Source: a virus. Taken from it: a DNA stretch of 64,000 bases. The notes beneath the pieces are model-generated. The model did not search any database and was not told where the DNA came from. It saw only the letters and a list, made by a program, of their open reading frames with translations. A program made the position numbers and the translations under genes. Every line of letters begins with the position of its first letter. The stretch's first letter is position 1. The stretch covers positions 64,001 to 128,000 of the IMG/VR virus record IMGVR_UViG_3300049215_000772; one strand, 5' to 3'. Shown here piece after piece: positions 16,248-56,506 of this stretch.

Positions 16248-16259
16248 GGAGATGATGCC

Positions 16260-17891
16260 ATGCCGTCCGTAGCTGATTTTCTTATCGAACGTCTCGAAAA
16301 CACCGGAGTAAAACACATCTTCGGTGTGCCAGGCGACTATGTTCTAAACTTCATCAAGCGATTGGGTGACAGCAAAAAGATCAAGTTTGTCAACACGACA
16401 GATGAGAATCATGCCGGTTTTGCTGCCGATGCCTATGCCAGAGTCAACGGCATTGGCTGCGTTGCAACAACTTATAACGTCGGCACTTTGAAAGTATGCA
16501 ATTCGGTAGCAGGGGCATACGCTGAAAGGTCGCCGATGATCGTCCTATCCGGCTCTCCCGGATTGAAGGAACGAAACGAAGATTTCATGCTTCATCACGT
16601 TGTCAAAAGTTTCGACAACCAGTTGAAGATGTTCAAACATATCACCTGCTACAGTGTCATTCTGGAAGACCCCACCAAAGCCGGATTCCTGATCGACGAG
16701 GCGTTGGAGGCGCTGAAGTTTCACAAGCAGCCAATCTACATCGAGTTGCCTCGTGACGTGGCTGAAATGCCCATCCGGTATGATGTGTACCGCCAAGGCA
16801 CTCCACATGCTCGTGAAAGTGATGGCCAGAACCTCAAGGAAGCCTTGGGTGAGGTTTGCGAGTGGATTACAAATGCTTCCAATCCTGTCATTGTGGCAGG
16901 CGTTCAGCTTGCCAGAATGAACCTGGGTGGGCAACTGGTGCGGTGGGCCGAGCGACACAACATCCCAATGGTGACTACGTTGTTGAGCAAATCAACAGTC
17001 AACGAATACCACCCATTGTTTGCTGGTGTTTACAGTGGCCCGCAAACATCAGAAGACGCTGTTCGCAAATTGGTTGATGATTCGGACTGCTTGCTAATCC
17101 TGGGTGAGATGTTGACGGATATGATGCTGGGTTTTCAGTCGCCCAAATTCACCAAGCGTCAGACTGTGTTCTGCTCGATTGAGGGATTGAAGGTCCGCAA
17201 CCACGCATACAATGATGTATTGTTCACCGACTTCTGCGCTGAATTGTTCAGGGTGAACTTGCCGAAGAAGGCAGAACCGGCCCTTCCGCCAAAGAAGATG
17301 ATGGAAGGGTTCGTGCCGCAGAAGGACAAGAAGATGACGACTCAGCGATTCTTCGAGAAGGTCAACTCGATGTTGAACGAGAAGATTGCTGTGGTCGCCG
17401 ATATTGGTGAAGTTTTGTTCGGGGCTTCCTCGTTGGTAGTTTCCCATCATCATTTCATCAGCCCGGCCTTCTATTGCAGCATGGGTCTTGCGATCCCTGG
17501 TGCTTTGGGAGTGGGCCTGGCAAAACCGGAACTGCGTCCGGTCGTGCTGGTGGGCGATGGTGCCTTCCAGATGTCCGTGAGTGAACTCAGCAGTCACTTG
17601 GAAAACAAGTTGAATACCATCGTGTTCGTGCTGAATAACAAGGGCTACACTACCGAACGGTTCCTGCTCGACGGAAAGTTCAACAATATCCGCAACTGGA
17701 ACTACCATGCTGTTCCCCATTTGTTGGGCGGCGGGACGGGTTACTTTGTGGAGACGGAGGAACAACTGGAGGCGGCTGTGGCGGCTGCTTTGAAGAGCAA
17801 AGAATTGGCAATCGTCAACGTGTCTGTCGATCCGACCGACATTTCAACAGCTTTAAGGAGAATGGTCGAAAATCTCTCTAAGAGAGTTTAA
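16260..17891 (+). CDS. Thiamine-diphosphate 2-keto acid decarboxylase (pyruvate/indolepyruvate decarboxylase family)
   Basis: 543 residues, the full length of the family. The N-terminal PYR domain has FGVPGDYVLNF and ENHAGFAADAYAR with the cofactor-activating Glu49. HH at 112-113 matches the His pair specific to pyruvate- and indolepyruvate-type decarboxylases, not acetolactate synthase. The PP domain has GDGAFQMS (432-439) and NNKGYTTE (459-466), the metal and diphosphate motif. The enzyme would convert a 2-keto acid to an aldehyde and CO2. Substrate cannot be read from the sequence. An aldehyde dehydrogenase lies 3.3 kb downstream. AAGGAGATGATGCC precedes the ATG. Confidence 0.85.
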   Translation: MPSVADFLIERLENTGVKHIFGVPGDYVLNFIKRLGDSKKIKFVNTTDENHAGFAADAYARVNGIGCVATTYNVGTLKVCNSVAGAYAERSPMIVLSGSPGLKERNEDFMLHHVVKSFDNQLKMFKHITCYSVILEDPTKAGFLIDEALEALKFHKQPIYIELPRDVAEMPIRYDVYRQGTPHARESDGQNLKEALGEVCEWITNASNPVIVAGVQLARMNLGGQLVRWAERHNIPMVTTLLSKSTVNEYHPLFAGVYSGPQTSEDAVRKLVDDSDCLLILGEMLTDMMLGFQSPKFTKRQTVFCSIEGLKVRNHAYNDVLFTDFCAELFRVNLPKKAEPALPPKKMMEGFVPQKDKKMTTQRFFEKVNSMLNEKIAVVADIGEVLFGASSLVVSHHHFISPAFYCSMGLAIPGALGVGLAKPELRPVVLVGDGAFQMSVSELSSHLENKLNTIVFVLNNKGYTTERFLLDGKFNNIRNWNYHAVPHLLGGGTGYFVETEEQLEAAVAAALKSKELAIVNVSVDPTDISTALRRMVENLSKRV

Positions 17892-17900
17892 CCAAAAATC

Positions 17901-18464
17901 ATGTACACCCAACGATATGACAAGGACAAGCGTTTCGGCAACAAGAAGAATGAGTACCCAATCAGGGTCAATTTCGGGATTAGAGTGCCAACGGTCAGGG
18001 TGGTACAAGAAGGAAAACAACTAGGAATAATGTCCACGGATCAGGCCAGGAAAATTGCCCAGGAAGCGGGCCTCGACTTGGTTGAGATCGTGCCGAATGC
18101 CCAACCGCCTGTGTGCGAGATCAAGGACTTCGGTAAGTGGAAGTTTGAGGAAAAAATCAAGCAAAAAGAGAGCGCCCGCAAGCAGCGTGAGTCTCAGGTA
18201 CAGTTGAAGGAAATTCGTCTTCGTCCTGGCATTGCTATGCACGATGTCGAAACGAAGGTGAACCAAGCGAAAGGATTTATCGCAGAAGGGAAGAACGTGC
18301 AGTTCAACCTTCAGTTCAAGGGACATCGTGAAATGTCTCACAAGGAACAAGGGTTCGCAGTCATCAACAAGATCGTCGCCGATCTAGCCGGGGTTTGTGC
18401 TGTCGAGAAAGCTCCCAAGATGGAGGGCAATCGAATCACATGCCGTTTAACCCCGAAGGGATAA
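17901..18464 (+). CDS. infC: Translation initiation factor IF-3
   Basis: 187 residues covering both IF-3 domains. The N-domain has PIRVNFGIRVPTVRVVQEGKQLGI and the DLVEIVPNAQPPVCEIKDFGKWKFE signature. A basic linker leads to the C-domain with IRLRPGIAMHDVETKVNQA and VQFNLQFKGHREM. IF-3 checks the initiator tRNA-start codon pairing and keeps 30S free. With phage bS21, deformylase and an initiator-like tRNA it points to direct takeover of initiation. The start is ATG at 17901; the short spacing to the upstream gene suggests co-transcription. Confidence 0.95.
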   Translation: MYTQRYDKDKRFGNKKNEYPIRVNFGIRVPTVRVVQEGKQLGIMSTDQARKIAQEAGLDLVEIVPNAQPPVCEIKDFGKWKFEEKIKQKESARKQRESQVQLKEIRLRPGIAMHDVETKVNQAKGFIAEGKNVQFNLQFKGHREMSHKEQGFAVINKIVADLAGVCAVEKAPKMEGNRITCRLTPKG

Positions 18465-19753
18465 TGGAAATAATCATGGCTGACGAGGCTTATTTCCGCA
18501 AAGTAGTTGAACTCCAAACAGAGTTCTTCAAGCGGTTGGAAACTCGTGACTCTCAACCAAGGGCCATGCCGCCCTCGTTGCTCGTTCGTTTGTTGGAATG
18601 CGATGACGAAATAATCGACTTGTCGCTCGGCAACATCGGACGGCGATTGAAAGGTTTTGCTGAGGAAGTGGATTTTACGCACCCTGATCTCTACACCATC
18701 TTCGATGGCGCATTGGTTGACGGGGCTGATTTCTCACAGGACTGCTTGGAATTGCTGTCGCTGGCCGAATTCGCCCGCAGCAAGCAACTGGTCCGCATCA
18801 TGCCGATGCTTGGCAAAATCATTACCAGGGAGTCGCTGGGCCGTAACGTCGTCCGCCGCATCGACAGCCCAGCCAGTGTCCGTATGCACGTTCGTTTGTT
18901 GAAAGACCCTGACGAGCGTGAAGAAATCCGTTCCACCAAGAAGATGCAGGTGATTGACCTGACATCCATCTACAAGAAGGGTGAGGACGCCTGGCGTGCC
19001 CAGCCTGACAACTTCCGCAGGTTCCTGCGTTTCGACACAGCCTACCAGGATGAGATCGCCAGGGCTGAGAAGAAGGCCACACGCTACAACGCCCTGGGCT
19101 GTTCGGCGCTGGCTGAAGAAATCATGAAAAGCGTGGAAGCCTTCCGTGAACACATGGACCAGGCTTACTATGGATTCAATCGCATTACTATGACCAATGC
19201 TGCCGTGGTGTTGGCGAAGTCCCTTGGCTACATCTACAACCCGCCCCCAGCCGGTGCGTTGTTCGCCAAAGATGAGCAGGCCGGCAAGATCGTGGTTTCC
19301 AGGAAGTTCTTCGGAAACTACAACTTCGACCCGGCCCACAACCCCATTGAGTATTCACCCATTGTCAGTGAGTCGGCTGGCACTCCTGTCTTCACCCAGC
19401 GGTATGCCCTGCCATTCCTATACGAACCTCGTGTATATCCATTACATCAGTTTTGGGATATTGCTCCTGAAGGTGTCCTGAAAACAGTTAGAACGCTGGA
19501 ATGCTTCCCGGATGCTGATGACAAGCCGATCTTCGATCACTTCGGCTTGATCGTGCCTAGCATCGGTTTCCCACCAGCGTCGAGTGAAGAAACTTACTCG
19601 TTTATCGACGATAAGGGGTTGTGTCGAACCTTCTCTCAGCGTGAGTCTGCGATGAAGGAACTGGACACCATCTTGATTCGCAATGGCCATTTCCATCCCA
19701 TTATCGTCGGAGAGAAAGATGGAAAGTGCTATTTTATTTCTTATTGGGTTTGA
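18464..19753 (+). CDS. Hypothetical protein
   Basis: 429 residues; ATG at 18464 overlaps the IF-3 stop (TAATG) with AAGGG upstream, and a second ATG at 18476 is possible. The body is mostly helical up to about residue 280 and more beta-rich with Pro and aromatic residues after. No motif recognised. Coupling to IF-3 is notable, but no link in function can be claimed. Confidence 0.5.
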   Translation: MEIIMADEAYFRKVVELQTEFFKRLETRDSQPRAMPPSLLVRLLECDDEIIDLSLGNIGRRLKGFAEEVDFTHPDLYTIFDGALVDGADFSQDCLELLSLAEFARSKQLVRIMPMLGKIITRESLGRNVVRRIDSPASVRMHVRLLKDPDEREEIRSTKKMQVIDLTSIYKKGEDAWRAQPDNFRRFLRFDTAYQDEIARAEKKATRYNALGCSALAEEIMKSVEAFREHMDQAYYGFNRITMTNAAVVLAKSLGYIYNPPPAGALFAKDEQAGKIVVSRKFFGNYNFDPAHNPIEYSPIVSESAGTPVFTQRYALPFLYEPRVYPLHQFWDIAPEGVLKTVRTLECFPDADDKPIFDHFGLIVPSIGFPPASSEETYSFIDDKGLCRTFSQRESAMKELDTILIRNGHFHPIIVGEKDGKCYFISYWV

Positions 19754-24525: not shown

Positions 24526-25608
24526 ATGGCTAGAGACTATTATGAGGTCTTAGGCGTAGCCCGAACTGCGACAGAAGAAGAGATCAAGAAAGCATACCGA
24601 CAACTTGCAAGGCAGCACCACCCGGACAGGAATCCGGGCGACAAGGAAGCCGAAACAAGGTTCAAAGAGGTCCAGGAAGCCTACGATACGCTAAGTGACA
24701 AAGAAAAAAAGTCTTTGTACGATTTGCGTGGGCATTCTGGTCCCTCAATGCGATTCAGACGAAAACCAAAACCAGGGTCAGCGCCCAACCCTGGGTTTTC
24801 GTATGAAGATGTTGTTTCCGAGATGTTCGGCGGCAGTGTTTTTCGTGGTCGGAACATTCAAGTTCGAGTTGAAGTTGAACTTCTCGAAGTCCTTACCGGC
24901 TGTACCAAAACCATCAAGATTAAGAAACGCAAGCGTTGCATGACTTGTTCAGGCAACGGCTTCACGGGATTCACACCTTGTTCGGTCTGCGCAGGCTCAG
25001 GCGTCAAGTTGATCCAAGATGCTCCGTTTGATCTTCAGATGGCTTGTCCGGTCTGCCAGGGCAGTGGCAAGGCTGATGTGACTCGTTGCGGAGATTGTCT
25101 AGGCAGTGGGTTTACGCCTATGACAGACAAGATGCTCAACGTGCAGATTCCAGCCGGTATAGGCAATGGCATGGCCGTCCGTATCCGTGGCGAGGGGGAA
25201 GAAGCACAGAAAACGGGAACGCCTGGCGATGTGATGGTGGTCGTGCTGGTGAAGGAACACCCGATTTTCAGGGTTGAGGGGCCGAATTTGGCTGTCGATA
25301 TTCCAGTATCGTACACACAAGTAGCCCTTGGTGGGAAGATTGACATCCCAACTTTGGCTGAAGGCAAGGTAGAAGTAGACATTCCAGCGGGTGCGCAGTC
25401 GAATACAAGATTCCGGCTCAAAGGCCGTGGTTTGCCGACGCCAGCGGGAGTGATGGGTGATCTGGTAGCAACTGTAAAGGTGGAGACACCAAAGGCTTTA
25501 GACGAGGAGTACAAGAAGGTTCTGGAGCAATTGGCGGAACTTGAGAAGAAGGTTGTCACGCCGAGTCGTGAGGCGTGGAACAAAAAAGTCGGCGAAGCAA
25601 CTAAATAG
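24526..25608 (+). CDS. dnaJ: DnaJ/Hsp40 co-chaperone, complete
   Basis: 360 residues. J-domain at 1-70 with HPD at 32-34; a short linker; four CxxCxGxG zinc repeats ([32 protein letters not shown]) in the middle; and two C-terminal substrate-binding domains ([20 protein letters not shown] and [19 protein letters not shown]). This is a full class A DnaJ, able to stimulate host DnaK. The Gly/Phe linker is short. No DnaK or GrpE lies in the window. The gene follows the GroES-like gene directly. Confidence 0.95.
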
Positions 25609-30990: not shown

Positions 30991-31176
30991 ATGCAACCAG
31001 TGTTAGACTCGATCAGACGCTTGTGGGAAGGGAACGGCTTCAGGATGGAGATCAAAGACGCTCCGAATGGAGCCGTGACCTTCGACAAGATGTTGATAGT
31101 ATTCAACGAATCCAACAAGATTCGCTCTCTGTATTTTTACTCTTCCAAAGAGGACAAAATCCTTGGGTGCTTCTAA
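30991..31176 (+). CDS. Small hypothetical protein
   Basis: 61 residues from ATG 30991; a TTG at 30973 overlapping the upstream stop is an alternative. Short strands (FRMEIKDAPNGAVTFDKMLIVF). Little support beyond an intact frame between two coupled genes. Confidence 0.35.
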   Translation: MQPVLDSIRRLWEGNGFRMEIKDAPNGAVTFDKMLIVFNESNKIRSLYFYSSKEDKILGCF

Positions 31177-31187
31177 ATAAGGGTATC

Positions 31188-31880
31188 ATGGCAAAGAAAA
31201 ACACACCCGCAACGAAGTCCGAACACAAAGCAGGAGGCAAGCGGTCGGGTCCGTTCCACCTGGAATTTCTCAACCAGGCACAAAAAATGGCCTGGGGAGC
31301 CTTCGACCAACATGACGTACTTTTCCTTCTCGGCCCAGCGGGGTGTGGTAAAACGCACCTTGCTTGCGCTTTCGCCATCAGTGAACTTCTCGCCAAGAAG
31401 AAACGCAAGATCGTACTAACCCGCCCTATTGTGGAAGCCGGCGAAAGCCTTGGCTATTTGCCGGGCACGTTTGACGAGAAGGTGAATCCCTACATGATGC
31501 CGATGTATGATTGCATCGAGAAAATGCTCGGTCCCACCTATGATGGCAACTCGCAGCGGGAGCAAATTAACCGTGCGATGGAAGTGGCCCCGATAGCGTA
31601 TATGCGGGGTCGTACATTTGACAATGCCGTGTGTATCTTCGACGAGGCTCAAAATGCTACGAGGATGCAGTTGAAGCTGTTCATGACCCGTTTCGGCGTG
31701 AACTCCAAGATCATTATCACGGGCGACCCAATGCAAAGCGACATTCGTGACCCTGCTTTGATGGATGTCGTCAAGAAACTTGAGGATTTGCAGGGAATTG
31801 GGGTTATCCACTTCAAGGCCAATAGCATTGTGCGGCACCCGTTGATTGCCAACATCCTCGAAAGGCTGGAGGACAAGTAA
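31188..31880 (+). CDS. phoH: PhoH-like P-loop ATPase
   Basis: 230 residues; ATG 31188 chosen because the longer frame back to 31023 overlaps another gene. Walker A GPAGCGKT at 49-56 and Walker B CIFDEAQN around 149-156 match PhoH (LGPAGTGKT and FIDEAQN). The VLTRPIVEAGESLGYLPG segment and IITGDPMQSD sensor are also family hallmarks. PhoH is widespread in phages; proposed roles involve RNA metabolism or phosphate stress, but its function is not settled. The stop overlaps the next ATG. Confidence 0.93.
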   Translation: MAKKNTPATKSEHKAGGKRSGPFHLEFLNQAQKMAWGAFDQHDVLFLLGPAGCGKTHLACAFAISELLAKKKRKIVLTRPIVEAGESLGYLPGTFDEKVNPYMMPMYDCIEKMLGPTYDGNSQREQINRAMEVAPIAYMRGRTFDNAVCIFDEAQNATRMQLKLFMTRFGVNSKIIITGDPMQSDIRDPALMDVVKKLEDLQGIGVIHFKANSIVRHPLIANILERLEDK

Positions 31881-34420: not shown

Positions 34421-35446
34421 ATGAGCCGCATTATCAGGTACTCGAAATTCGAGAGCAAACGAAACTTCGGGGTTGAATTTGAAATCAACAACACGGTGCC
34501 CAAATACCGTATCAAGAACATCATCAAGTCTGTTTCCAACCGACAGATTCAGATGTCCTATTGGGGCAAGGACAACGGCAACACCTACTGGCACATCAAA
34601 GATGACTCTTCATGTGGACCGCAGGGTATGGACGGTCCCAGGGGCTTCGAGATAGCTTCCTACGTCGGCAGCGGCATTGATGACATCATTCATATGGCCG
34701 ATGTCGCCGACTTGCTGCAAGAAAAAAAAGTTGAAGTAACCCCTCACTGCGGCCTGCACATCCATGCCGATTGTTCCGATCTCACTGTTCTTCAAGTCGG
34801 TACAATCGTTGCGTATTGGTTGAAGATCGAATATATCCTGGGCATGGCACTTCCCCAGCGCCGGCGAGGGAATATCTTCTGCCGTTATATGCACCAGGGC
34901 TGTAACTGGCGGGTTGATCGACGAGCCAATTACACCGCCCAGCAAGTGTGGGATTTGTTCAAACCAGAAAACCTTTCCGAACAAGACAACGACGAACGGC
35001 GAGTCACGCTGAACCTGGTCAACTACGCCAGGGCAGTGTGGTACAAGTGGTACACCCGCAAAACCATTGAGCTACGCTGGCCCGAAGGTACGCTGGACGG
35101 GCGTAACATCAAGAACTGGTTGAGGTTATTTCTACACTTCATTGAAACCGTCAAAAACAAGCCGATGCCGGAACACACGGATCATTGCACTTCTTTGGCA
35201 GAAGCCCTCACCATTCTCGGTCTGCACCATTCCGACGATGAATTCCTGATCCTGAGTGAAGGATTGATGGATACGAAGACTTGGCTGCTGGAACGTATAT
35301 GGTACTTTCTGTATTGGGAGGGGGACCGATATGCCAGCAAGGAGAAGGAGCAATATAGCGCTGAGGCCCGGCGAATGCTCAACTATATGTGGACGCCGTT
35401 GGGCAAATACACTGTGGTCGAAGATATATACCCATACGACTTGTAA
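34421..35446 (+). CDS. Amidoligase-like enzyme (glutamine-synthetase-type COOH-NH2 ligase fold)
   Basis: 341 residues. Three family markers are in place: NFGVEFEINN near residue 15, HCGLHIHADCSD near 110, and RKTIELRWPEGTLDG near 208. These supply the metal- and ATP-binding acidic and histidine residues of the amidoligase_2 group, which is related to glutamine synthetase and gamma-glutamylcysteine ligase. Such enzymes form amide bonds between small molecules or peptides. Gene context in other phages has been linked to peptide tagging or cell-wall chemistry; here the substrate is unknown. Confidence 0.75.
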   Translation: MSRIIRYSKFESKRNFGVEFEINNTVPKYRIKNIIKSVSNRQIQMSYWGKDNGNTYWHIKDDSSCGPQGMDGPRGFEIASYVGSGIDDIIHMADVADLLQEKKVEVTPHCGLHIHADCSDLTVLQVGTIVAYWLKIEYILGMALPQRRRGNIFCRYMHQGCNWRVDRRANYTAQQVWDLFKPENLSEQDNDERRVTLNLVNYARAVWYKWYTRKTIELRWPEGTLDGRNIKNWLRLFLHFIETVKNKPMPEHTDHCTSLAEALTILGLHHSDDEFLILSEGLMDTKTWLLERIWYFLYWEGDRYASKEKEQYSAEARRMLNYMWTPLGKYTVVEDIYPYDL

Positions 35447-40164: not shown

Positions 40165-40464
40165 ATGAAATCAGTTACAACAGAAAATTTCACCCAGGAA
40201 ATCGACGCACCATGCCTTGCCTATTTTTGGGCGGCATGGTGCGGCCCGTGTTTCAATCAGGAAGAAGAACTTAAAATCTTGGAGAAGGAATTCCCCAAGA
40301 TCGGCTTCCTGAAAATCAACTGCGACGAGAACCACCAATTGGCAAACGATCACAACATCATCGCCGTGCCTACGACGATTCTATTCAAGAACGGCAAGGT
40401 GGTTCAACGACTCGCTGGAATGCAGAAAGTTAGTGCGATGAGGGAAGCGTTGAAAAAACTATGA
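40165..40464 (+). CDS. trxA: Thioredoxin
   Basis: 99 residues. The active-site WCGPC is at 25-29 after the beta strand APCLAYFWAA; the cis-Pro loop is AVPTTILF; the final GKVV motif and C-terminal helix complete the fold. It reduces disulfides in phage or host proteins such as ribonucleotide reductase. Ends overlapping the next gene by 4 bases. Confidence 0.93.
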   Translation: MKSVTTENFTQEIDAPCLAYFWAAWCGPCFNQEEELKILEKEFPKIGFLKINCDENHQLANDHNIIAVPTTILFKNGKVVQRLAGMQKVSAMREALKKL

Positions 40465-41507
40465 GGAAGCGAGTTTTGCTTACTGGAGTCGGTGGATTCA
40501 TCGGCTCTCATTGCCTGAGATACTTTCTCGATCACACGGACTGGCATATCATCGGTCTTGATTCTTTCCGTCACAAAGGCACTTATTCCCGCCTGGACGA
40601 CATCTACGCTGATGGCGAACGAGTCACCCTGCTAAAGCATGACCTGACTGTACCCATCGACTTCGCCCTCGAAAGTCGTATCATGGGCCGGGAACTAGAA
40701 GGTAATCGTGTTATTGAGCCGGGTCTGGACTACATCATCAGCATGGCCTCCGATTCCGCTGTGGAGCGCAGTGTATCTGACCCCGGCGCTTGCTGGCGGA
40801 ACAACTGCGAACTTGTCTACAACATGCTGGAATTTGCCCGCAAGGTGAAGCCCCGGATATTTTTTCAGATCAGTACCGATGAAATCTACGGTGATTGTCC
40901 TCCGGGATATTCCCACCCGGAGTGGGACACAATCCTTCCGTCCAACCCCTATGCAGCCAGCAAAGCCGCCCAAGAAGCCCTCGCTATATCTTACTGGCGC
41001 AGCTTCCATGTTCCGGTGGTCATTACCAACTGCATGAACTGCATTGGCATCACCCAGGATAAGGAAAAATTCCTTCCTAAGCTGATCTGGAAGATTGCTA
41101 CAGGGCAGGAGATGGAAATCTACGCCGACCTGTTGCCTGATGGAACTCACCATATTGGTACTAGGTTCTATCTCCATTGCGAAAATCACGCCGATGCCCT
41201 GGTGTGGCTGTCGGAGAGATCAGTTGCCAAGTACGGCGGCGATGTTCGTGTCCCTGACAGATACAACATTTGCGGCGAAGTCGAACTCAACAACCTGGAG
41301 ATGGCCGAGTTGGTGGCTGACATCATGGGTAAGTCCCTGAAGTACAAGTTGGTTCCTTCCCAATCAGCACGCCCTGGTTACGACCGACGTTATGCGCTGG
41401 ACGGAAGCAAGATTCGCAACCTGGGATGGAAGGCACCTGTTGAGTTTGAGGCGGGCCTCGAAAGAATCATTCAGTGGCAGATGGATCACCCCTGGTGGGT
41501 GATATAA
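40461..41507 (+). CDS. dTDP-glucose 4,6-dehydratase-like short-chain dehydrogenase (RmlB family)
   Basis: 348 residues. NAD-binding GVGGFIGSH at the N-terminus; catalytic QISTDEIYGD (Thr-Asp-Glu) and NPYAASKAAQE (Tyr-x-x-x-Lys) follow; the C-terminal YNICGEVELNNLEMAELV segment binds the nucleotide-sugar. The DxE pair after Thr points to the 4,6-dehydratase subclass. With the nucleotide-sugar dehydrogenase at 22.7 kb and the glycosyltransferases it implies phage-made sugar nucleotides. Confidence 0.85.
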   Translation: MRKRVLLTGVGGFIGSHCLRYFLDHTDWHIIGLDSFRHKGTYSRLDDIYADGERVTLLKHDLTVPIDFALESRIMGRELEGNRVIEPGLDYIISMASDSAVERSVSDPGACWRNNCELVYNMLEFARKVKPRIFFQISTDEIYGDCPPGYSHPEWDTILPSNPYAASKAAQEALAISYWRSFHVPVVITNCMNCIGITQDKEKFLPKLIWKIATGQEMEIYADLLPDGTHHIGTRFYLHCENHADALVWLSERSVAKYGGDVRVPDRYNICGEVELNNLEMAELVADIMGKSLKYKLVPSQSARPGYDRRYALDGSKIRNLGWKAPVEFEAGLERIIQWQMDHPWWVI

Positions 41508-44112: not shown

Positions 44113-44324
44113 CCGAATCTCAACAAGCCGTCGTGATGGGAATGGCGCTCCTTGCCGCCACCACTGTCGAGCGGGCTGTTTACGAGAACGTCAAAAACGG
44201 CAAGCAGGCATGGGATGAAGTTCTTGCCTTGGGTCTGATCGTCAAGGACGATGGTTTCTACGTCCTCAGCGATAATGGCCGAAAGGCCGTCAAAACCATT
44301 CACCAGCAATACCACCACCAATGA
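44091..44324 (+). CDS. Small hypothetical protein
   Basis: 77 residues from a GTG with AGGAG upstream. Helical with a C-terminal GFYVLSDNGRKAVK pattern similar to winged-helix tips. DNA binding is possible, not shown. Confidence 0.4.
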   Translation: MSTVPNLTESQQAVVMGMALLAATTVERAVYENVKNGKQAWDEVLALGLIVKDDGFYVLSDNGRKAVKTIHQQYHHQ

Positions 44325-44337
44325 GTCCGAGGAAATC

Positions 44338-45264
44338 ATGAACGAAGTCGTTATCGTTATGGGCTACCCGGCTGCCGGGAAGACCCGCACCACCCAGGGC
44401 TACGTTGACAAGGGGTTCGCCCGTCTCAATCGTGACACCCAGGGCGGAACCGTCGCCGATCTACTTCCACAACTCGACGTGTTGCTTTCCAGCAAGAAGA
44501 ACGTCGTGATGGACAATCTTTTCGCTACCAGGGCCAGTCGTGCCGGCGTCCTGGCTACGGCGAAGAAGCACAAGGCCAGGGTGACGTGTGTGAACCTGGG
44601 GGCGTCTCTCGAAGACGCTCAATTCAATGCCTGCCTTCGCATGATGGAACGGGCCGGCAAGATTCTCGATCCCACGGAGAAGACCGGCGACCCGAACCTG
44701 TTCCCGATGGCGGTCATCTACAAGTATCGGAAGGAATACGAGAGGCCGCTCGACTCGGAGGGTTTCGAGGAAATCCGCAGCGTTCCCTTCGTCCGGGAAT
44801 GGCCGAAGGACTGGACGAACGCTGCCTTCATCTTCGACTACGACGGCACACTCCGGGACACGAAGAATGGCGACAAGTTCCCGACCAGCACGGACAACAT
44901 CGTGATTCTACCGGGCCGGAAGGAAAAGCTGGCAAAGCTGAAGAAGGACGGGGCACTCCTGTTGGGAGTTTCCAATCAGTCCGGCATCGCCAAGGGCGAA
45001 CTGACCAAGGACCGGGCCATCGAGTGTTTCCAGCATACCAACAAGCTGCTGGGCGTGGACATCGACTTCCAGTTCTGCCCCCACAAGGTTCCACCAATCA
45101 CCTGCTACTGTAGGAAGCCCGGCACCGGCCTGGGGGTGGCGCTGATCGTCAAGTACAAGCTGGACCCCAGGAAGTGTGTGTTCGTTGGCGACATGGGAAC
45201 CGACAAGTCCTTCGCCGAGCGCTGCCACTTCCAGTTCCAGGATCAAAACAGGTTCTTCGGGTGA
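44338..45264 (+). CDS. Bifunctional polynucleotide kinase-phosphatase
   Basis: 308 residues; ATG 44338. N-terminal P-loop kinase with Walker A GYPAAGKT at 9-16. C-terminal HAD phosphatase with nucleophile Asp167 in FDYDGT and GVSNQSGIAKGE; the CPHKVPPITCYCRKPGTG zinc-loop is like GmhB and animal PNKP. T4 Pnk has the same kinase-phosphatase order. It would heal nucleic acid ends before ligation; a DNA ligase lies 1.7 kb downstream. Confidence 0.88.
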   Translation: MNEVVIVMGYPAAGKTRTTQGYVDKGFARLNRDTQGGTVADLLPQLDVLLSSKKNVVMDNLFATRASRAGVLATAKKHKARVTCVNLGASLEDAQFNACLRMMERAGKILDPTEKTGDPNLFPMAVIYKYRKEYERPLDSEGFEEIRSVPFVREWPKDWTNAAFIFDYDGTLRDTKNGDKFPTSTDNIVILPGRKEKLAKLKKDGALLLGVSNQSGIAKGELTKDRAIECFQHTNKLLGVDIDFQFCPHKVPPITCYCRKPGTGLGVALIVKYKLDPRKCVFVGDMGTDKSFAERCHFQFQDQNRFFG

Positions 45265-50676: not shown

Positions 50677-51267
50677 ATGAGTGAACCGTTCCTGCACCCG
50701 ATTTTGTGGCGGAAGGACCGACCCTGTTACCAGGCAGGCATTTTTGATGCCACCGGGACGGAGCCGGTCGATCCTGCCGAGTTCATCGAGTTGCACCAGC
50801 ACAGCACGCTTGGTCTTGGAAATATCACCTATTCCCTGGAGGAACATTTCGCACGCTTGGAGGCTTCCGAGAGGTACAGGAAGTCGCTTGGCATCCCGGA
50901 CATGAACTATCTTGCCTACAGCTTCAACGCCGGCTACAACGTCGAGCAAGTAATTGCTTTGATCGAGAAGTGTCGGGAGTTGGGCTACGAGGTTCGAGGA
51001 TGGTTCAACGAAGAATCGGCCATGATGGTGATTGCCGCTGCCACTTACGACTTGACGGAGGATTCAGGGTGGGAGTTGTACGAATGGGCGAAACTCAAAG
51101 GCAACTGTCCTAGCGACAGCTACGGGCACGCCAGTTGGTATGAATTCTGCTTGTTCGGCATCCCCATCTACGACACATGGGCGTTGCAAAACACATCCCC
51201 ATTCAGGAACGGAAAGTTGATCGCTGTGTCACCCGATGGGCAAAGGATCGCTTTCTTCGGACCCTAA
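50677..51267 (+). CDS. Hypothetical protein
   Basis: 196 residues. A YxxxG-rich alpha/beta sequence (LGIPDMNYLAYSFNAGYNVEQVIALIEKCRELGYEVRGWF). First gene of the operon that includes a sigma factor and the E2-like pair. No known family. Confidence 0.45.
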   Translation: MSEPFLHPILWRKDRPCYQAGIFDATGTEPVDPAEFIELHQHSTLGLGNITYSLEEHFARLEASERYRKSLGIPDMNYLAYSFNAGYNVEQVIALIEKCRELGYEVRGWFNEESAMMVIAAATYDLTEDSGWELYEWAKLKGNCPSDSYGHASWYEFCLFGIPIYDTWALQNTSPFRNGKLIAVSPDGQRIAFFGP

Positions 51268-51281
51268 CATGGCGGGGTCGA

Positions 51282-51839
51282 ATGTTGACGACGTTGACGT
51301 TGATTGAAGCTGAGATCGAAGTTGCCGAACATCTTGGTTTGGCGCACAAGGTCGCTCGGCAGTTCGCTGACAAAAGCATCCCGATCAGAGATTCGGAGGA
51401 ATACTCCGAAGCGTGCATGGCATTGGTGGAGGCGGCGAGAGATTACGATCCCAATGATGGAGAATTTTCTACTGTTGCTTGTCGCCAGATGCAACAGGCC
51501 ATCATTGATTCGTACCGTCGCCGTGAACGGCAGAAGCGGAAGGGGAAGCTTGATAAGGGCGCAAAACTGGATGATGTCCCATCCAGGGAGGAACATGAGC
51601 CTATTCCTTCTGATCTTCTGTATCAGTTTTTGGCGGATCATCCCAGCGAGTCCAAGCAAGATCGTTCCGACAAGTTGCTGCTGATCGAGGTTTTCCTGGG
51701 TGGCAACAAAGTTTCCGACATCGCTGAACGCTTATGCGTTTCTCGTCCCACGATCTACAACAGGATCGAGCGATGTCTTGCCAAAATCAGAGAGAGGCAT
51801 CCCGACTTGTTGGAACGATACCAAGAGGCGTTCCAATGA
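51282..51839 (+). CDS. Alternative sigma factor
   Basis: 185 residues; ATG 51282. Region 2 with SEEYSEACMALVEAARDYDPNDGEFSTVACRQMQQAIIDSYRRRER, then a short linker and region 4 with VSDIAERLCVSRPTIYNRIERCLAKI. Region 3 is almost absent. It lies in the operon that leads into the ubiquitin-like genes, so it may time their expression or late genes in general; this is inference. Confidence 0.82.
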   Translation: MLTTLTLIEAEIEVAEHLGLAHKVARQFADKSIPIRDSEEYSEACMALVEAARDYDPNDGEFSTVACRQMQQAIIDSYRRRERQKRKGKLDKGAKLDDVPSREEHEPIPSDLLYQFLADHPSESKQDRSDKLLLIEVFLGGNKVSDIAERLCVSRPTIYNRIERCLAKIRERHPDLLERYQEAFQ

Positions 51840-52345
51840 CAATCAGCAGAACCCCGGTGAAGGACTCGCTCGTGGTCTTCACTGAAGGGGCCAAAGTCAA
51901 TTTCAAGCTGTTCGGTTTCGTCGCCCCGGTGTTCGGATGTAACATCAACGGCGAACCACGACTTGTTCCGGTCAAGATTGAAAACCAGGCAGACAAGGAA
52001 AAGTTCCGGCAGCAAATCCTGGCGATGATCGCCGATGGATCGCTGTCCGAATTTGTTTTCGTCTCTGAAGCCTGGATGGTGTCAACCAGCGACCCCCAGG
52101 AAGCCAAGGTCTGGCTGGCCGAGCATGGCAGTCTCGAAGGCTTTCCGGGCCGGCGAGAGGCTGTTCAGGTGTTTTATTGTTCTGCAAACGAGGAAATCTG
52201 CTATACAGCTTGGATAGAACGGGGTAGTATACCAGCAACTCTCAGCGAGTGGGAAGTCCAGACCCGTTCCGGCCATTTCACACTCCCTGACCTGGAAACC
52301 CGATTCCAAGGGCTGTTCGCACAAGGCAAGGCAGGAAATAACTGA
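51836..52345 (+). CDS. Hypothetical protein before the E2-like pair
   Basis: 169 residues; ATG overlaps the sigma stop (ATGA) and its own stop overlaps the next ATG. Alpha/beta: VVFTEGAKVNFKLFGFVAPVFGCNING, SEFVFVSEAWMVST, then AVQVFYCSANEEI. Its place between a sigma factor and the conjugation proteins is constant only within this window. Function unknown. Confidence 0.5.
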   Translation: MTISRTPVKDSLVVFTEGAKVNFKLFGFVAPVFGCNINGEPRLVPVKIENQADKEKFRQQILAMIADGSLSEFVFVSEAWMVSTSDPQEAKVWLAEHGSLEGFPGRREAVQVFYCSANEEICYTAWIERGSIPATLSEWEVQTRSGHFTLPDLETRFQGLFAQGKAGNN

Positions 52346-53385
52346 TGGCAGCTACCCAAAAGGAAATCGTTGATGCTGTGGCGTCGGCGCTCCAGCACAA
52401 AAACCTCTCACAGCAAGCGGTGGCCGTTATCCACCGCTCGACGGAGAAGGTGTTGAAACGCATCCAACAGGATGTCGGGGCGCAGTTCAAGGAAGATGGC
52501 GATGATGTCGTTGAAGACTTCTGCAAGAACCTGGCGACCAAGCTAGGGCAGATGAGCCAGAACTGGTACGACGGCATTCGCAACGAACTCATCGTGTACC
52601 CTGAAGGAACCCGGTTCATCTACCGTGACGGCACTACTGTTGTCATCGTTGTGGAGCAGCAGCCCCAGGTCCGCACCATCAACGTCAACGGCACGATGCA
52701 CCACCTGGCGTTCCCCTACGTCGTGTTCATCATGGGGTTCAACAATGGAGCCTGGAACGGGGCGCTGGACGTGGCCATTCGCACCAGGCCGCTGACCAGC
52801 CTCGACGACCCGCTTTGTTCGATTGGTCTTCCCAACATCAGCGGCTACCGGGTGTGCATGGGCGATTTCCGCAACAACCCGAAGACCAACATGACGGAAC
52901 AAACGCAGGCCGTCATCGGTTCCTTCTGGCAAAGCCAGTTCGGGGGCGACATTCGCAATCTCCCTAGTTGGGAGCGGCAGACGAAGCGTGACCCTTTGTA
53001 CGTCCTGCACGAGAACTACACCCAGGTCGGCCCGCTTCGTCAGGTCGTGTCGGCGGTAAGCCGCAATGCCGGCGAACGCCCCGATATTGTCAATACGCTC
53101 AAACAGGAGATCATCACGGCGGTCGGCACTATCGGAGCCGAGATTCAGAAGACTATGCTGACCCTCGATATGGTCAAGCAGAACAAGGAAAAGGTCCATA
53201 TCGAGACGCTGGATGAAATTCTGAAGGAAATCATCGTCCAGGCGTATGCCGAACTGTGGGAATATCTCCAGGCCCAACTCCAGCGGGAGCGTGCCAAGAT
53301 GCAGCAGGAGATGGTTTCCCTCCTCAAGCGGAAGACCGGCTACTCGGACGAGTACGAGAAGACTACCAAATGGGGCAACGGATGA
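52345..53385 (+). CDS. E2-like ubiquitin-conjugating protein candidate, copy 1
   Basis: 346 residues. A helical N-terminus is followed by beta strands (ELIVYPEGTRFIY, VVIVVEQQPQVRTI, LAFPYVVFIMGF) and then GLPNISGYRVCMG at about 161-173. This fits the E2 signature HPN(I/V)xxxGx(I/V)CL, with Cys171 where the catalytic cysteine of UBC-fold proteins lies. The copy downstream keeps the same order of strands and the same Cys. The C-terminus is coiled coil. Neighbours are JAMM, E1-like and ubiquitin-like genes. The call is from motif, context and duplication, not from a structure. Confidence 0.65.
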   Translation: MAATQKEIVDAVASALQHKNLSQQAVAVIHRSTEKVLKRIQQDVGAQFKEDGDDVVEDFCKNLATKLGQMSQNWYDGIRNELIVYPEGTRFIYRDGTTVVIVVEQQPQVRTINVNGTMHHLAFPYVVFIMGFNNGAWNGALDVAIRTRPLTSLDDPLCSIGLPNISGYRVCMGDFRNNPKTNMTEQTQAVIGSFWQSQFGGDIRNLPSWERQTKRDPLYVLHENYTQVGPLRQVVSAVSRNAGERPDIVNTLKQEIITAVGTIGAEIQKTMLTLDMVKQNKEKVHIETLDEILKEIIVQAYAELWEYLQAQLQRERAKMQQEMVSLLKRKTGYSDEYEKTTKWGNG

Positions 53386-54371
53386 TGGTGACTTCCAATG
53401 CTGTTCGTCAAAGCCTGGAACGCATCCGGGCCGAGGCTATCCGAAAAGCCCGCCTTGGTATCGCTGAGAAAAAGTCCAAGGTACGGGTCGATCTTGTTGA
53501 GGAAGCTGTACAAAAACTGCAACAGGGTGTTCGTGGCCCTGTTGCAGTTGAAGTTTCCAACAAGGTCTGTCGGAAAGTCGTGGATCGCTTTCTGACAATC
53601 TTCCAAAATGGCCTCGACGAGTTTCGGGAGGCGCTGGCAGAACGTACCACCTTTCCTAGTGCCGCCAGGACCAGCAACAACGAGATCATGGTTTACCCGG
53701 AAGGTTGCCGGTTCATGTACACGGACCAGCGCAGCCAGGGCGTAATGGTTATCGAGCAGCAGCCGCAGGTTCGCACGGTTTTGCTTTCGGACAGGACGAA
53801 GAAGCATATTCCACTGCCGTATGTTATCTTCATTGTCCAATACACTGTCAGACATGGGAATTACAACTACGCCGGCCTCCGGGTTGGGTTTCGTAATAGC
53901 CCAATTAAAAGTCTGGAAGACCGCCTATATCTTCCTTCATTGCCCAACTTCACCGAGCATCAGGTGTGCATGGGATCATATGAGGGGGTGACTGGTGGGG
54001 ATACGCCGAGCGACGTTGCCGACGACATTATCGGCACGTTCTGGCAAAGCGTATTCGGCAGCGGGTTCCACGGTTTCAAGTATGGGAACTCGAATATCTC
54101 TTCTTGGACTTCCTGGGAAGCTATTGCTGGGAACAACCCGCTCAATATCCTGAAGGCAAAATGGCGGCAAGGGAAGCTGTTGTCGGACTTGATCTCGCAA
54201 TACAGTGAGGCCAATTCCGGCGACGGGCGGCAGGTGAACGATTTTGTTCAGAAAACGTGGAACCGGCTCGCCAACGAACTGGATGCTGAAGAAGCGCAAA
54301 TACTCATCCAGGGAGCCGCCCAGGAGATTTTGGCCCAACTTCTCAATGATCTGGCTTTACAACCTCAATGA
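53382..54371 (+). CDS. E2-like ubiquitin-conjugating protein candidate, copy 2
   Basis: 329 residues; ATG 53382 overlaps the upstream stop. A paralogue of the previous gene: matching blocks EIMVYPEGCRFMY, VMVIEQQPQVRTV, PLPYVIFIV, SLPNFTEHQVCMGSY (Cys196) and GTFWQSVFG. N-terminal helices and C-terminal helices differ. Two E2-like copies could pair with each other or serve different targets. It ends just before the promoter of the JAMM-E1-modifier unit, whose -35 lies inside its 3' end. Confidence 0.65.
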   Translation: MMVTSNAVRQSLERIRAEAIRKARLGIAEKKSKVRVDLVEEAVQKLQQGVRGPVAVEVSNKVCRKVVDRFLTIFQNGLDEFREALAERTTFPSAARTSNNEIMVYPEGCRFMYTDQRSQGVMVIEQQPQVRTVLLSDRTKKHIPLPYVIFIVQYTVRHGNYNYAGLRVGFRNSPIKSLEDRLYLPSLPNFTEHQVCMGSYEGVTGGDTPSDVADDIIGTFWQSVFGSGFHGFKYGNSNISSWTSWEAIAGNNPLNILKAKWRQGKLLSDLISQYSEANSGDGRQVNDFVQKTWNRLANELDAEEAQILIQGAAQEILAQLLNDLALQPQ

Positions 54372-54384
54372 TCGGTAGTAGAAT
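54356..54384 (+). promoter_or_regulatory. TTTACA-type promoter of the JAMM-E1-modifier unit
   Basis: -35 TTTACA at 54356-54361, 17-bp spacer, -10 TAGAAT at 54379-54384. It allows the deconjugase, E1 and modifier to be made separately from the E2-like pair; a terminator at 56472 closes the unit. Confidence 0.65.
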
Positions 54385-54431
54385 CCACACCATGACAAGC
54401 TGATATGGCTTCAGCAAGAAGGGAGACAATG

Positions 54432-55313
54432 ATGGCTGACGAGAAACCCCTGGCACTGTTCCCGGTCTACCTCTACGAAGAGGGAGTCCAGTTGCCGACG
54501 AAGGGGCGATATTACCTCATCACCAAGAACGGCATCTACATGCACAAGGAAACCAAGGTGGGTTCCGGTTTGGTGAAGGTGGACGGCATTCCGTGGCTCC
54601 AGGGCGTCAGCGCCAATATGAGGCTCGGCCTGCCCAAGATCACTGGCGACATCATCGCCACGGCCCTGAACTTCTTTCGTCGGGTGTTTCAGGTCCATAA
54701 GAGCGAGGCTTACGTCACGCTCCTGTACAGCAGCAAACTCAACAAGTACCGGCTGTGGTGCCCCAAGCAACGAGTCACTGCCGGCTCCGTCAACTACGAC
54801 CGAACCGACCAGCCGCAGTTCTCCGAGCGACTGACCGACGACTGGCAGATGGTCGGAACCATCCATTCCCACTGTGACTTCTCGGCGTTCCACAGCGGGA
54901 CCGACACGTTCGACGAGTCCACGTTCGACGGCATCCACATCACCCTGGGGCACGTCAACCGGGACAACTTCAGCATGGTCGCTTCCATCGCTTTCAACAA
55001 CCAGCGGGAGCAGATGGAACCCGAAAACTGCACCCTGGGCGTGGCTCGTGTCGGCAACAAGCAGGTGTCCGGCAGCAAGTGGATGACGTTCGGGGACGCC
55101 AACTACTTCACCCTGGAACTCTCCGAAGAAGACGCCCAGGCCATGCCCGCCGTGATGGAAATGATCGAGCAGGAATGGATGCCGAAGGTCGAACACGGCT
55201 GGAAAGGGGGTGGGTCTGACGACAGTTTTTTTCAGGAGGGAAGCGGGGGCGGAAGGGGAAGCGGAGGTAGCTGGTGGAACAAGCTGGGGTTCGGCGGCGG
55301 ATTCCTTGGCTAA
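54432..55313 (+). CDS. JAMM/MPN+ metallo-isopeptidase
   Basis: 293 residues; ATG 54432 has AAGGGAG 6 bases upstream (in-frame ATGs at 54405 and 54429 are alternatives). The JAMM metal motif is complete: Glu92 in the early helix-strand, then His145-Ser-His147, seven residues, Ser155, two residues, Asp158 (HSHCDFSAFHSGTD). It would cleave isopeptide bonds to remove a modifier from targets or trim its C-terminus. The Gly/Ser-rich C-terminal tail (GGGRGSGGSWW) is unusual. PRTRC protein A is a comparable family. Next to an E1-like gene. Confidence 0.85.
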   Translation: MADEKPLALFPVYLYEEGVQLPTKGRYYLITKNGIYMHKETKVGSGLVKVDGIPWLQGVSANMRLGLPKITGDIIATALNFFRRVFQVHKSEAYVTLLYSSKLNKYRLWCPKQRVTAGSVNYDRTDQPQFSERLTDDWQMVGTIHSHCDFSAFHSGTDTFDESTFDGIHITLGHVNRDNFSMVASIAFNNQREQMEPENCTLGVARVGNKQVSGSKWMTFGDANYFTLELSEEDAQAMPAVMEMIEQEWMPKVEHGWKGGGSDDSFFQEGSGGGRGSGGSWWNKLGFGGGFLG

Positions 55314-55374
55314 CGAAGATGAACTGACCGAGGAAGAAATCGACCGGCTACTCGACGAAAGGGAGTGGGATTAA
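55306..55374 (+). CDS. Possible 22-residue peptide or frameshift extension
   Basis: A TTG-initiated frame overlaps the end of the JAMM gene and ends 2 bases before the E1 start. It encodes LTEEEIDRLLDERE within 22 residues, a strongly helical acidic peptide. It could be a small gene, a +1 frameshift tail of the JAMM protein, or chance. GGCGGCGG is upstream but no clear Shine-Dalgarno. Confidence 0.35.
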   Translation: MANEDELTEEEIDRLLDEREWD

Positions 55375-55375
55375 C

Positions 55376-56083
55376 ATGGCGAAGAAACCGAAGGGGTTGA
55401 AGGTGAAGGTTGTTGGGTGTGGTGGTATCGGCTCCTGGCTGATCGACCCGCTTTGCACCCTTCTCAACTTCAGCACGATTCCGTCCATCGAAGTCGGCCT
55501 GATCGACGGCGACACCTACGAGGAACGAAATCGAGAGCGCCAGAACTTCGACGTGATCGGAGCGAAGGCGACGATCACCGCCGCCAGGCTGAAGGATCGG
55601 TTCCCCCGGCTCTTCATCCAGGATCACCCGGCGTATTTGAACGACGCCAATATCATTTCCCTCATTCGGGAACACGATGTTGTGGCTGTTTGTGTTGACA
55701 ACCACAAGACCCGGAAACTCATCAGTGACCGGGCCGAGGAACTGGACAACATCATCGTCGTCAGCGGGGGCAATGAACTCACGGACGGCAACGTGTTGGT
55801 CCATATCCGACGTGACAGCGAAAACGTCACGTTGCCTCTTGCCAACAAGTACCACCCGGAACTCCAGAATCCTGGGGACAAGAACCCCGGCGATGACAAG
55901 GAACATGGGTGCCAGGTGATGGCGGCGGCAGAACCGCAATTGGTGGCGACCAACTTCAACGTCGCCTCCATCATGCTGAATGAACTGTACAAGATCGTGA
56001 CCAATCACGACCGGGTTGGCAAGGTGAGCGAGATCAACTTCGACATCCTCACCGGCAACGCCAAAGCACAGCTTCGGAAGTGA
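55376..56083 (+). CDS. E1/ThiF-like adenylating enzyme
   Basis: 235 residues. The nucleotide-binding GCGGIGSW is at 14-21; IDGDTYEERNRERQNF at 43-58 gives the Asp pair, Arg and Gln-Asn expected for adenylation of a C-terminal glycine. Cys179 in EHGCQVM is a candidate catalytic cysteine. It is shorter than MoeB and eukaryotic E1 and similar in size to PRTRC ThiF proteins. It probably adenylates the C-terminal glycine of the 110-residue protein encoded next. Good context on both sides. Confidence 0.82.
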   Translation: MAKKPKGLKVKVVGCGGIGSWLIDPLCTLLNFSTIPSIEVGLIDGDTYEERNRERQNFDVIGAKATITAARLKDRFPRLFIQDHPAYLNDANIISLIREHDVVAVCVDNHKTRKLISDRAEELDNIIVVSGGNELTDGNVLVHIRRDSENVTLPLANKYHPELQNPGDKNPGDDKEHGCQVMAAAEPQLVATNFNVASIMLNELYKIVTNHDRVGKVSEINFDILTGNAKAQLRK

Positions 56084-56120
56084 CGGACTGACCAACACTC
56101 AACAAGAAGGGAGATACCCA

Positions 56121-56453
56121 ATGGCAGGACAGAAGCAGGAAAAAGGGCAGGGCTTCAGCAAGTTGCCCGCCGCAACGGAAACCGTGTCGGCCAGTGGCCT
56201 GACGGCCCCGGACGCCAGCGCACTCCTGGCGAAACTGGACGGCAAGGTGAAGGTTATCCACGGAGCCAACGACGACACGTTCGACGGCCTCGTGGGTCAG
56301 AAGGTTTCGACGGTTCGGGCGAGCCTTGTTGACGCTTTCAACATCCCCGGCGATGCTTTGGCGCTGGTCAACGGCCAGCAGGTGGACAACACCTACTCGT
56401 TGCAGCAAAACGACGTGCTGGAGTTCATCAAGCAGGCCGGCGTCAAGGGCTAA
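56121..56453 (+). CDS. Ubiquitin-like modifier candidate
   Basis: 110 residues with AAGGGAG upstream. A disordered 45-residue N-terminus is followed by a beta-grasp-like core (KVKVIHGANDDTFDGLVGQKVSTVRASL, ALALVNGQQV, LQQNDVLEFIKQ) in which a GxxVxxVR helix and the GQQV loop match ThiS/MoaD/ubiquitin spacing. It ends in Gly-Val-Lys-Gly, and PRTRC protein C ends in Gly-Thr-Lys-Gly. A single C-terminal Gly suits adenylation by the E1. Located between the E1 gene and a strong terminator. Confidence 0.7.
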   Translation: MAGQKQEKGQGFSKLPAATETVSASGLTAPDASALLAKLDGKVKVIHGANDDTFDGLVGQKVSTVRASLVDAFNIPGDALALVNGQQVDNTYSLQQNDVLEFIKQAGVKG

Positions 56454-56471
56454 GGTCCGAGTCCGTCACTC

Positions 56472-56506
56472 GCCGGGGGTGTGGTGACACACACCCCCGG
56501 CTTTTT
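56472..56506 (+). terminator. Rho-independent terminator
   Basis: A 12-bp GC-rich stem beginning GCCGGGGGTG at 56472 with its partner ending at 56501, then five T. It ends the JAMM-E1-modifier unit, leaving it as a discrete transcription unit. Confidence 0.88.

What the first reader, a model, noticed from the sequence alone, without database searches (positions are those of the whole stretch)
52345..56506. A phage-encoded ubiquitin-like conjugation system: two E2-like proteins, JAMM peptidase, E1 and a Lys-Gly-ended modifier
Seen: two paralogues with (L/P)PN(I/F)...VCMG at Cys171 and Cys196; a complete JAMM motif (Glu92, HSH at 145-147, Ser155, Asp158); a ThiF/E1 core (GCGGIGSW, GDxxxxxNRxRQNF) and a beta-grasp candidate ending Gly-Val-Lys-Gly. 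Last three are bounded by a promoter at 54356 and a terminator at 56472. Known: PRTRC clusters combine JAMM, E2-like, ThiF and a small modifier ending in GxKG; Bil and CBASS operons use similar parts. Inference: the phage conjugates its own modifier to host or virion proteins, with two E2s giving target choice. A full set in a phage would be a notable system.
Basis: partly seen in the sequence, partly recalled or inferred. Interest (0 to 1): 0.95.

Follow-up and report, generated by a model that had tools for sequence, protein, structure and literature searches.

The report
Large-phage ubiquitin-like conjugation cassette
A large bacterial virus carries a compact, conserved set of genes that looks able to tag proteins with its own ubiquitin-like modifier and remove it again, and dozens of other large viruses carry the same set, some with up to nine different tagging enzymes; I found no published description of a viral system of this kind.

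Summary
The window is part of a 134-kb tailed-phage record and encodes, in order, two E2-like proteins, a JAMM peptidase, an E1/ThiF and a 110-aa modifier ending Val-Lys-Gly. Domain searches support E1 and JAMM. AlphaFold plus Foldseek make the modifier a ubiquitin/SUMO-type beta-grasp. The E2s rest on a weak Prok-E2_D match, a PN...VCxG active-site motif and an invariant Cys; no known E2 structure matched their model. The same order recurs in 340-kb, 527-kb and 120-kb virus contigs. A second subtype (at least 26 virus loci) has one long E2, a degenerate second E1 and a Rho_N-fused modifier, upstream of phage RNA polymerase genes. The 527-kb and 340-kb phages encode 9 and 7 E2-like genes, all keeping the Cys, but one modifier each. 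Related cassettes occur in Chloroflexi, NC10 and CPR bins. It is a sister of PRTRC (operon type 6d), not a member: curated cut-offs were not met. Best reading: a phage-run ubiquitin-like conjugation/deconjugation pathway with E2s as target selectors, perhaps acting on nucleic-acid or transcription proteins; targets are inferred only. New variant of a known kind.

The parts
52345..53385 (+). E2-like protein 1 (346 aa), predicted catalytic Cys171
   Evidence: Prok-E2_D PF14460 E=4.9e-4, 20.3 bits against cut-off 25; Cys171 invariant in 34 aligned viral E2s and in 32 spread over viruses, bins and plasmids
53382..54371 (+). E2-like protein 2, paralogue of the first, Cys196; start overlaps the stop of E2-1
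   Evidence: aligned with E2-1 at about 30% identity; no Pfam match by itself
54356..54384 (+). promoter-like site before the JAMM gene (TTTACA-17-TAGAAT)
   Evidence: consensus scan, 10 of 12; not evidence of function
54432..55313 (+). JAMM/JAB metallopeptidase (listed ORF starts at 54405)
   Evidence: Prok-JAB 9.7e-6 above cut-off; PRTRC_A 7.5e-9, 35.4 bits against cut-off 101.8; catalytic residues conserved
55376..56083 (+). E1/ThiF-type adenylating enzyme with invariant Cys179
   Evidence: PF00899 2e-23; PRTRC_ThiF 6.3e-18, 65 bits against cut-off 144.75; alignment A7; MoeB, UBA5, SUMO E1 among PDB sequence matches
56121..56453 (+). ubiquitin-like modifier (110 aa), beta-grasp about 41-105, C-terminus ...AGVKG
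   Evidence: AlphaFold core pLDDT above 90; Foldseek SUMO1/ubiquitin/Mth1743, probability 1.00, E 4e-4; TGS 2.2e-4; Lys-Gly invariant in 36 homologues
56472..56501 (+). intrinsic terminator closing the JAMM-E1-modifier unit
   Evidence: 12-pair stem, 10 GC, then TTTTT
51177..51839 (+). sigma-70-family-like protein just upstream; conserved beside the cassette in the four type I virus contigs
   Evidence: Sigma70_ECF 7.6e-9, Sigma70_r2 1.2e-7; cluster c26 in window, L002, L010, L059; not found in L074
51734..52345 (+). 203-aa protein of unknown function between sigma-like gene and E2-1, stop overlapping the E2-1 start
   Evidence: no Pfam or NCBIfam match

Best explanation
A phage-encoded ubiquitin-like conjugation and deconjugation pathway. 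E1 adenylates the C-terminal glycine of the 110-aa modifier and takes it as a thioester on Cys179; it passes it to the cysteine of one of two E2-like proteins (Cys171 or Cys196), which attach it to lysines of target proteins without a dedicated E3. The JAMM protein removes the modifier and, in relatives whose modifier has extra residues after the glycine, also matures it. The window's modifier already ends in glycine and needs no maturation. Different E2s choose different targets. The targets are most likely proteins of transcription, replication or DNA handling during infection. Shown: the five genes, their catalytic residues, the modifier fold, and conservation of the set and its order. Inferred: every reaction step, the roles of the E2s, and the targets.
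For: Full set with intact motifs. Modifier fold like SUMO/ubiquitin. 39 of 47 viral loci found through E1 alone also carry E2, JAMM and modifier; most of the rest are cut by contig ends. Thirteen of 36 viral modifiers have 1-5 extra residues after Lys-Gly, consistent with JAMM maturation. One modifier but 9 (527 kb) and 7 (340 kb) E2-like genes, all keeping the Cys. Target hint: sigma-like gene beside type I, RNA polymerase beta' and beta beside type II in 26/26 loci, Rho_N domain on 24/36 modifiers, one dispersed E2 with a lysine-rich histone-H1-like tail (L180).
Against: No biochemistry. E2 fold not confirmed: Foldseek against the PDB gave no significant match, the E2 profile hits no E2 in PDB sequences, and profile comparison with yeast E2s is weak though in register at the catalytic Cys (score 27.0, above all of 100 shuffles, for the wide profile; 23.3, exceeded once, for the phage-only profile). 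The downstream His said to be strictly conserved in operon type 6d E2s is not kept. Neighbour genes are weak evidence for targets and the target claim is the least certain part.
Confidence: 0.75

Rival explanations
1. A sulfur-carrier system: E1 makes a thiocarboxylate on the ThiS/MoaD-like protein and the JAMM protein releases a product, as in CysO/Mec+ or quinolobactin synthesis; the E2-like proteins are accessory enzymes. Family facts are from general knowledge and PMC1779556.
For: The modifier matches TGS/ThiS profiles and E1 matches MoeB/ThiF. Type II loci have a radical-SAM gene and FolE2 nearby.
Against: No sulfurtransferase, rhodanese or cysteine/thiamine genes found next to the cassette among the neighbours scanned; an invariant Cys in an E2-like family with UBC-type active-site motif and expansion to 7-9 E2s have no role in sulfur transfer. 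Iyer et al. 2006 use the lack of linked metabolic enzymes as the sign of conjugating systems.
Confidence: 0.12
2. Counter-defence: the set interferes with host ubiquitin-like antiphage systems (Bil, CBASS Cap2/Cap3), for example by JAMM removing host tags or by the modifier acting as decoy.
For: Host Bil conjugates a modifier to phage proteins (cited in PMC12660748). The E1 shows weak similarity to PADLOC E1-E2 models. Borg elements are proposed to use JAMM proteins against host SAMP tagging.
Against: A complete E1-E2-modifier set is not needed for removal. E2 expansion and the conserved genomic place beside RNA polymerase or sigma genes fit an intrinsic phage process better.
Confidence: 0.15
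3. A PRTRC-type plasmid-like maintenance cassette carried by a phage, with its unknown PRTRC function.
For: PRTRC_A and PRTRC_ThiF are the best named matches; same parts list as operon type 6d.
Against: All PRTRC models below curated cut-off; no PRTRC_B, PRTRC_C or ParB match in the record.
Confidence: 0.05
4. The 'E2-like' proteins are not E2s but another Cys-containing fold, and E1 attaches the modifier directly to substrates or to these proteins.
For: AlphaFold model of E2-1 found no UBC fold in the PDB; confident Foldseek matches only to unnamed phage proteins.
Against: PF14460 match spanning the Cys; LPNT.DDGxVCLG in Chloroflexi homologues is a textbook UBC active-site motif; in-register profile match.
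Confidence: 0.2

Closest known systems
PRTRC cassette / operon type 6d of Iyer et al. 2006 (PMC1779556)
   Same: Separate JAB, E1, E2-like (Prok-E2_D) and small beta-grasp modifier; best named matches are PRTRC_A and PRTRC_ThiF
   Different: Below curated cut-offs; no PRTRC_B/C/ParB hits; downstream His of the 6d E2 not conserved; two to nine E2s; in phages, beside sigma or RNA polymerase genes
Compact E2-JAMM-E1-modifier cassettes in Chloroflexi, NC10, Lentisphaerae and CPR metagenome bins (found here, L075-L153)
   Same: Same four families, E1 35-48% identical, modifiers ending ...GxKG
   Different: Mostly one short E2 (about 260 aa) and a 75-aa modifier domain; apparently cellular in Chloroflexi/NC10, though bins are not proof
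Bil, Bub and CBASS type II (Cap2/Cap3) systems
   Same: E1, E2 and JAB parts; E1 has weak similarity to PADLOC E1-E2 models and to Citrobacter BubCD
   Different: Those are bacterial antiphage systems, often with E1-E2 fusions; E2s here match no PADLOC model
Lambda/T1 tail-assembly TAPI-TAPK (PMC1779556)
   Same: Phage-encoded beta-grasp plus JAB
   Different: No E1 or E2; tail assembly; NlpC/P60 fusion
Bacillus phage vB_BauM_KLEB27-3 gp194-196
   Same: Isolated phage with E1, PRTRC_A-like JAMM and E2_D-like protein in a row
   Different: No modifier recognised nearby; E1 only about 30% identical

Membership tests
PRTRC cassette | PRTRC_ThiF (TIGR03736) above curated cut-off | tested here: not met
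   65 bits against 144.75
PRTRC cassette | PRTRC_A (TIGR03735) above curated cut-off | tested here: not met
   35.4 bits against 101.8
PRTRC cassette | PRTRC_B (E2-like, TIGR03737) | tested here: not met
   no match in G000; best relative 18.2 bits against 131.45
PRTRC cassette | PRTRC_C modifier (TIGR03738) | tested here: not met
   no match in G000
PRTRC cassette | ParB-related protein (TIGR03734) | tested here: not met
   no match in G000; relatives below cut-off. G000 may be incomplete
Operon type 6d (Iyer 2006) | Stand-alone JAB, E1, E2-like and C-terminal-Gly beta-grasp genes together | tested here: met
Operon type 6d (Iyer 2006) | E2-like with absolutely conserved His downstream of the Cys | tested here: not met
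   no such invariant His in A6; present as NHD in KLEB27-3 and Alicyclobacillus homologues
Ubiquitin/SUMO-type beta-grasp modifiers | beta-grasp fold | tested here: met
Ubiquitin/SUMO-type beta-grasp modifiers | exposed C-terminal glycine that is adenylated | not testable with these tools
   glycine present and invariant; adenylation needs an assay
E1 (ThiF/MoeB/UBA) enzymes | GxGGxG, DxD, NxxRQ, Lys, invariant Cys | tested here: met
UBC-fold E2 enzymes | UBC fold | tested here: inconclusive
   Pfam Prok-E2_D 4.9e-4 below cut-off; no PDB fold match; weak in-register profile match
UBC-fold E2 enzymes | catalytic Cys after PN motif | tested here: met
   invariant in 34 and 32 sequences
JAMM/MPN+ peptidases | Glu ... 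HxH(x7)SxxD | tested here: met
Bil / CBASS type II defence | matching defence models | tested here: not met
   only weak E1-E2 hits for E1, none for E2, JAMM, modifier

The most novel reading that the evidence does not exclude
Large phages run a branched, eukaryote-like modifier network: one modifier, one activating enzyme and up to nine E2s acting as target selectors (plus, in the second lineage, a two-part E1 with one degenerate subunit and a modifier carrying a nucleic-acid-binding Rho_N domain) that tags transcription and DNA-handling proteins to control the infection programme.
Probability: 0.25. Interest if true: 0.95.

Novelty: new variant of a known kind. Interest (0 to 1): 0.82.

Why it matters
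Bacteria are known to use ubiquitin-like conjugation against phages. A complete, conserved conjugation set in phages themselves, with E2 expansion, would show the chemistry used by the virus. It would give compact, testable E1-E2-modifier-peptidase systems outside eukaryotes, and bears on how one-modifier, many-E2 networks arise. No described phage conjugation system turned up in the papers searched, though the library holds open-access papers only.

Tried and rejected
(1) Single-sequence scans of the virus collection with E2-1 found nothing, and with E1 one locus; alignments were needed. (2) JAMM-alignment scan found only L002's contig. (3) tblastn of the E2s in isolated phages: no match. (4) Foldseek of E2-1 against the PDB: no UBC fold; against viral models only unnamed phage proteins. 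(5) A PDB sequence match of the E2 profile to Tll1590 was followed; that name belongs to glycosyltransferase papers, taken as chance. (6) PRTRC membership tested and rejected. (7) Apparent cellular hosts: L074 (Neisseriaceae bin) shares LigA, phosphoesterase and synthetase genes with the window and the 340-kb phage, and L081/L086 show the type II phage synteny, so these bins are taken as holding phage contigs, not as host evidence. (8) The low-complexity 'UBL' hits upstream of type II E2s (L015, L017, L021) share only the Rho_N-like N-terminus and were not counted as modifiers.
Full report
What the window is. The window is bases 64001-128000 of a 134,115-base IMG/VR virus record. The record encodes a terminase large-subunit fragment, a T4-type major head protein, UvsX-like recombinase, single-strand binding protein and DNA polymerase pieces, so it is a tailed phage; completeness is unknown. 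No RNA polymerase gene was found in it.

The observation. Five co-directional genes are present as described: E2-1 (52345-53385), E2-2 (53382-54371, start overlapping the E2-1 stop), JAMM (54432-55313), E1 (55376-56083), modifier (56121-56453). The named residues check out. E1 matches ThiF at 2e-23; JAMM matches Prok-JAB and PRTRC_A; E2-1 matches Prok-E2_D weakly (4.9e-4, below the curated cut-off); E2-2 matches nothing in Pfam by itself; the modifier matches TGS at 2e-4.

Relatives in viruses, type I. An E1 query reached a 527-kb virus contig (L002) with the same order: sigma-like, E2, E2, JAMM, E1, modifier ending GQKG. Profile searches added a 340-kb contig (L010/L057, three E2s) and a 120-kb contig (L059). 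A 70-kb contig in a Neisseriaceae bin (L074) has the same cassette (two E2s) and shares LigA, a phosphoesterase and other genes with the window and the 340-kb phage, so it is taken as a misbinned phage contig. A sigma-like gene lies beside the cassette in the four virus contigs, not in L074.

Relatives in viruses, type II. At least 26 virus loci share SbcD, SbcC, radical SAM, c9, c8, a long E2 (about 850 aa, UBC-like motif in the N-terminal third), JAMM, E1, modifier (about 155 aa), second ThiF (E1b), c10, RNA polymerase beta' and beta, often FolE2. The modifier has an N-terminal Rho_N domain in 24 of 36 viral modifiers scanned and ends LEFLKPAG[RK]KG, sometimes with a trailing Cys or a few residues; 13 of 36 viral modifiers have such an extension. 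E1b keeps the ATP-site glycines and Lys but has lost Arg55, Gln56 and the catalytic Cys (replaced by Ala, Val, Leu and others). This resembles the inactive half of eukaryotic heterodimeric E1s; that comparison is inference from general knowledge. Terminase was found in 19 of 20 records checked.

Conservation as a unit. Of 47 viral loci collected through E1 alone, 39 also carry E2, JAMM and modifier; the others are mostly cut by contig ends, and L050, L051, L053 and L055 lack a recognised modifier. Contig sets contain near-duplicates, so the counts are not independent. Cys171 is invariant in 34 aligned E2s and, with Pro124, one of only two invariant positions in 32 very diverse ones. The E1 Cys and the JAMM residues are invariant or nearly so.

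Structure. The modifier model is confident over 41-110 (pLDDT above 90) and matches SUMO1, ubiquitin and Mth1743 with probability 1.00. The E2-1 model is confident over its core (about 90-240), but Foldseek found no PDB match below E 0.27 and only unnamed phage proteins among viral models. I take the E2 assignment as likely but unproven.

One modifier, many E2s. Searching whole records, the 527-kb phage has 9 E2-like matches and the 340-kb phage 7, while each has one modifier. All dispersed copies keep the Cys. One has a lysine-rich histone-H1-like tail (L180), one an N-terminal segment that looks like a helix-turn-helix (L172, by eye). The window record shows only the two E2s of the cassette.

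Relatives in cellular bins and evolution. A genome scan gave 80 loci, almost all metagenome bins of Chloroflexi, NC10, Deltaproteobacteria, Lentisphaerae, CPR and others, most with E2, JAMM, E1 and modifier. A quick E1 tree puts type I among CPR-bin loci and type II apart, next to Uhrbacteria-bin loci; many inner branches are weak. This fits at least two phage lineages exchanging the cassette with cells, direction unknown. Some bin contigs carry the phage synteny (L081, L086) and are probably viral.

Mechanism. The parts predict adenylation and thioester on E1, transfer to E2 Cys, lysine conjugation, and removal by JAMM. Nothing here measures a reaction. Targets: the links to sigma, RNA polymerase, Rho_N and lysine-rich tails make nucleic-acid or transcription proteins my first guess, at roughly one in three.

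Known or new. Operon type 6d/PRTRC is the closest described kind. Membership fails on curated cut-offs, on PRTRC_B/C/ParB and on the downstream His. The jumbo-phage survey PMC7824862 mentions ubiquitin only for eukaryotic viruses and in a reference title, and literature searches found no phage conjugation system; the library lacks most subscription papers, so absence there is not proof.

Noticed in passing
L016:11232-12089 and 25 other type II loci: Second ThiF-like gene beside the modifier has lost the catalytic Cys and the Arg-Gln of the ATP site, like an inactive E1 partner.
   Followed up: partly
L016:12894-15602 and 15797-18799: Unsplit phage RNA polymerase beta' (902 aa) and beta (1000 aa) directly downstream of the type II cassette in all 26 loci.
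   Followed up: partly
G001 and G002 records (L172-L182): Dispersed E2-like genes outside the cassette, all with the Cys; one fused to a lysine-rich histone-H1-like tail (L180), one to an HTH-like N-terminus (L172).
   Followed up: partly
L072 (Bacillus phage vB_BauM_KLEB27-3 gp194-196): An isolated 217-kb phage carries E1, PRTRC_A-like JAMM and an E2_D-like protein; no modifier was recognised nearby. A cultivable relative for experiments.
   Followed up: partly
window 34421-35446: Amidoligase_2-family gene (PF12224, 2.3e-18) some 18 kb upstream of the cassette; may be unrelated.
   Followed up: no
window 24526-25608, 31023-31880, 40461-41507, 44251-45264: Phage-encoded DnaJ, PhoH, NAD-dependent sugar epimerase and polynucleotide kinase-phosphatase.
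   Followed up: no
window 55210-55374: A small ORF overlaps the end of the JAMM gene in another frame and ends in an acidic stretch; the L002 JAMM has an acidic tail in frame, so a frameshift is possible.
   Followed up: no
G000:C1:29693-30490 (L155:9693-10490): Terminase large subunit appears as a 265-aa N-terminal fragment on the minus strand; the rest may be split or interrupted.
   Followed up: no
L050, L051: 178-kb virus records with a divergent JAMM plus E1 pair and a weak E2-like neighbour but no recognised modifier.
   Followed up: no
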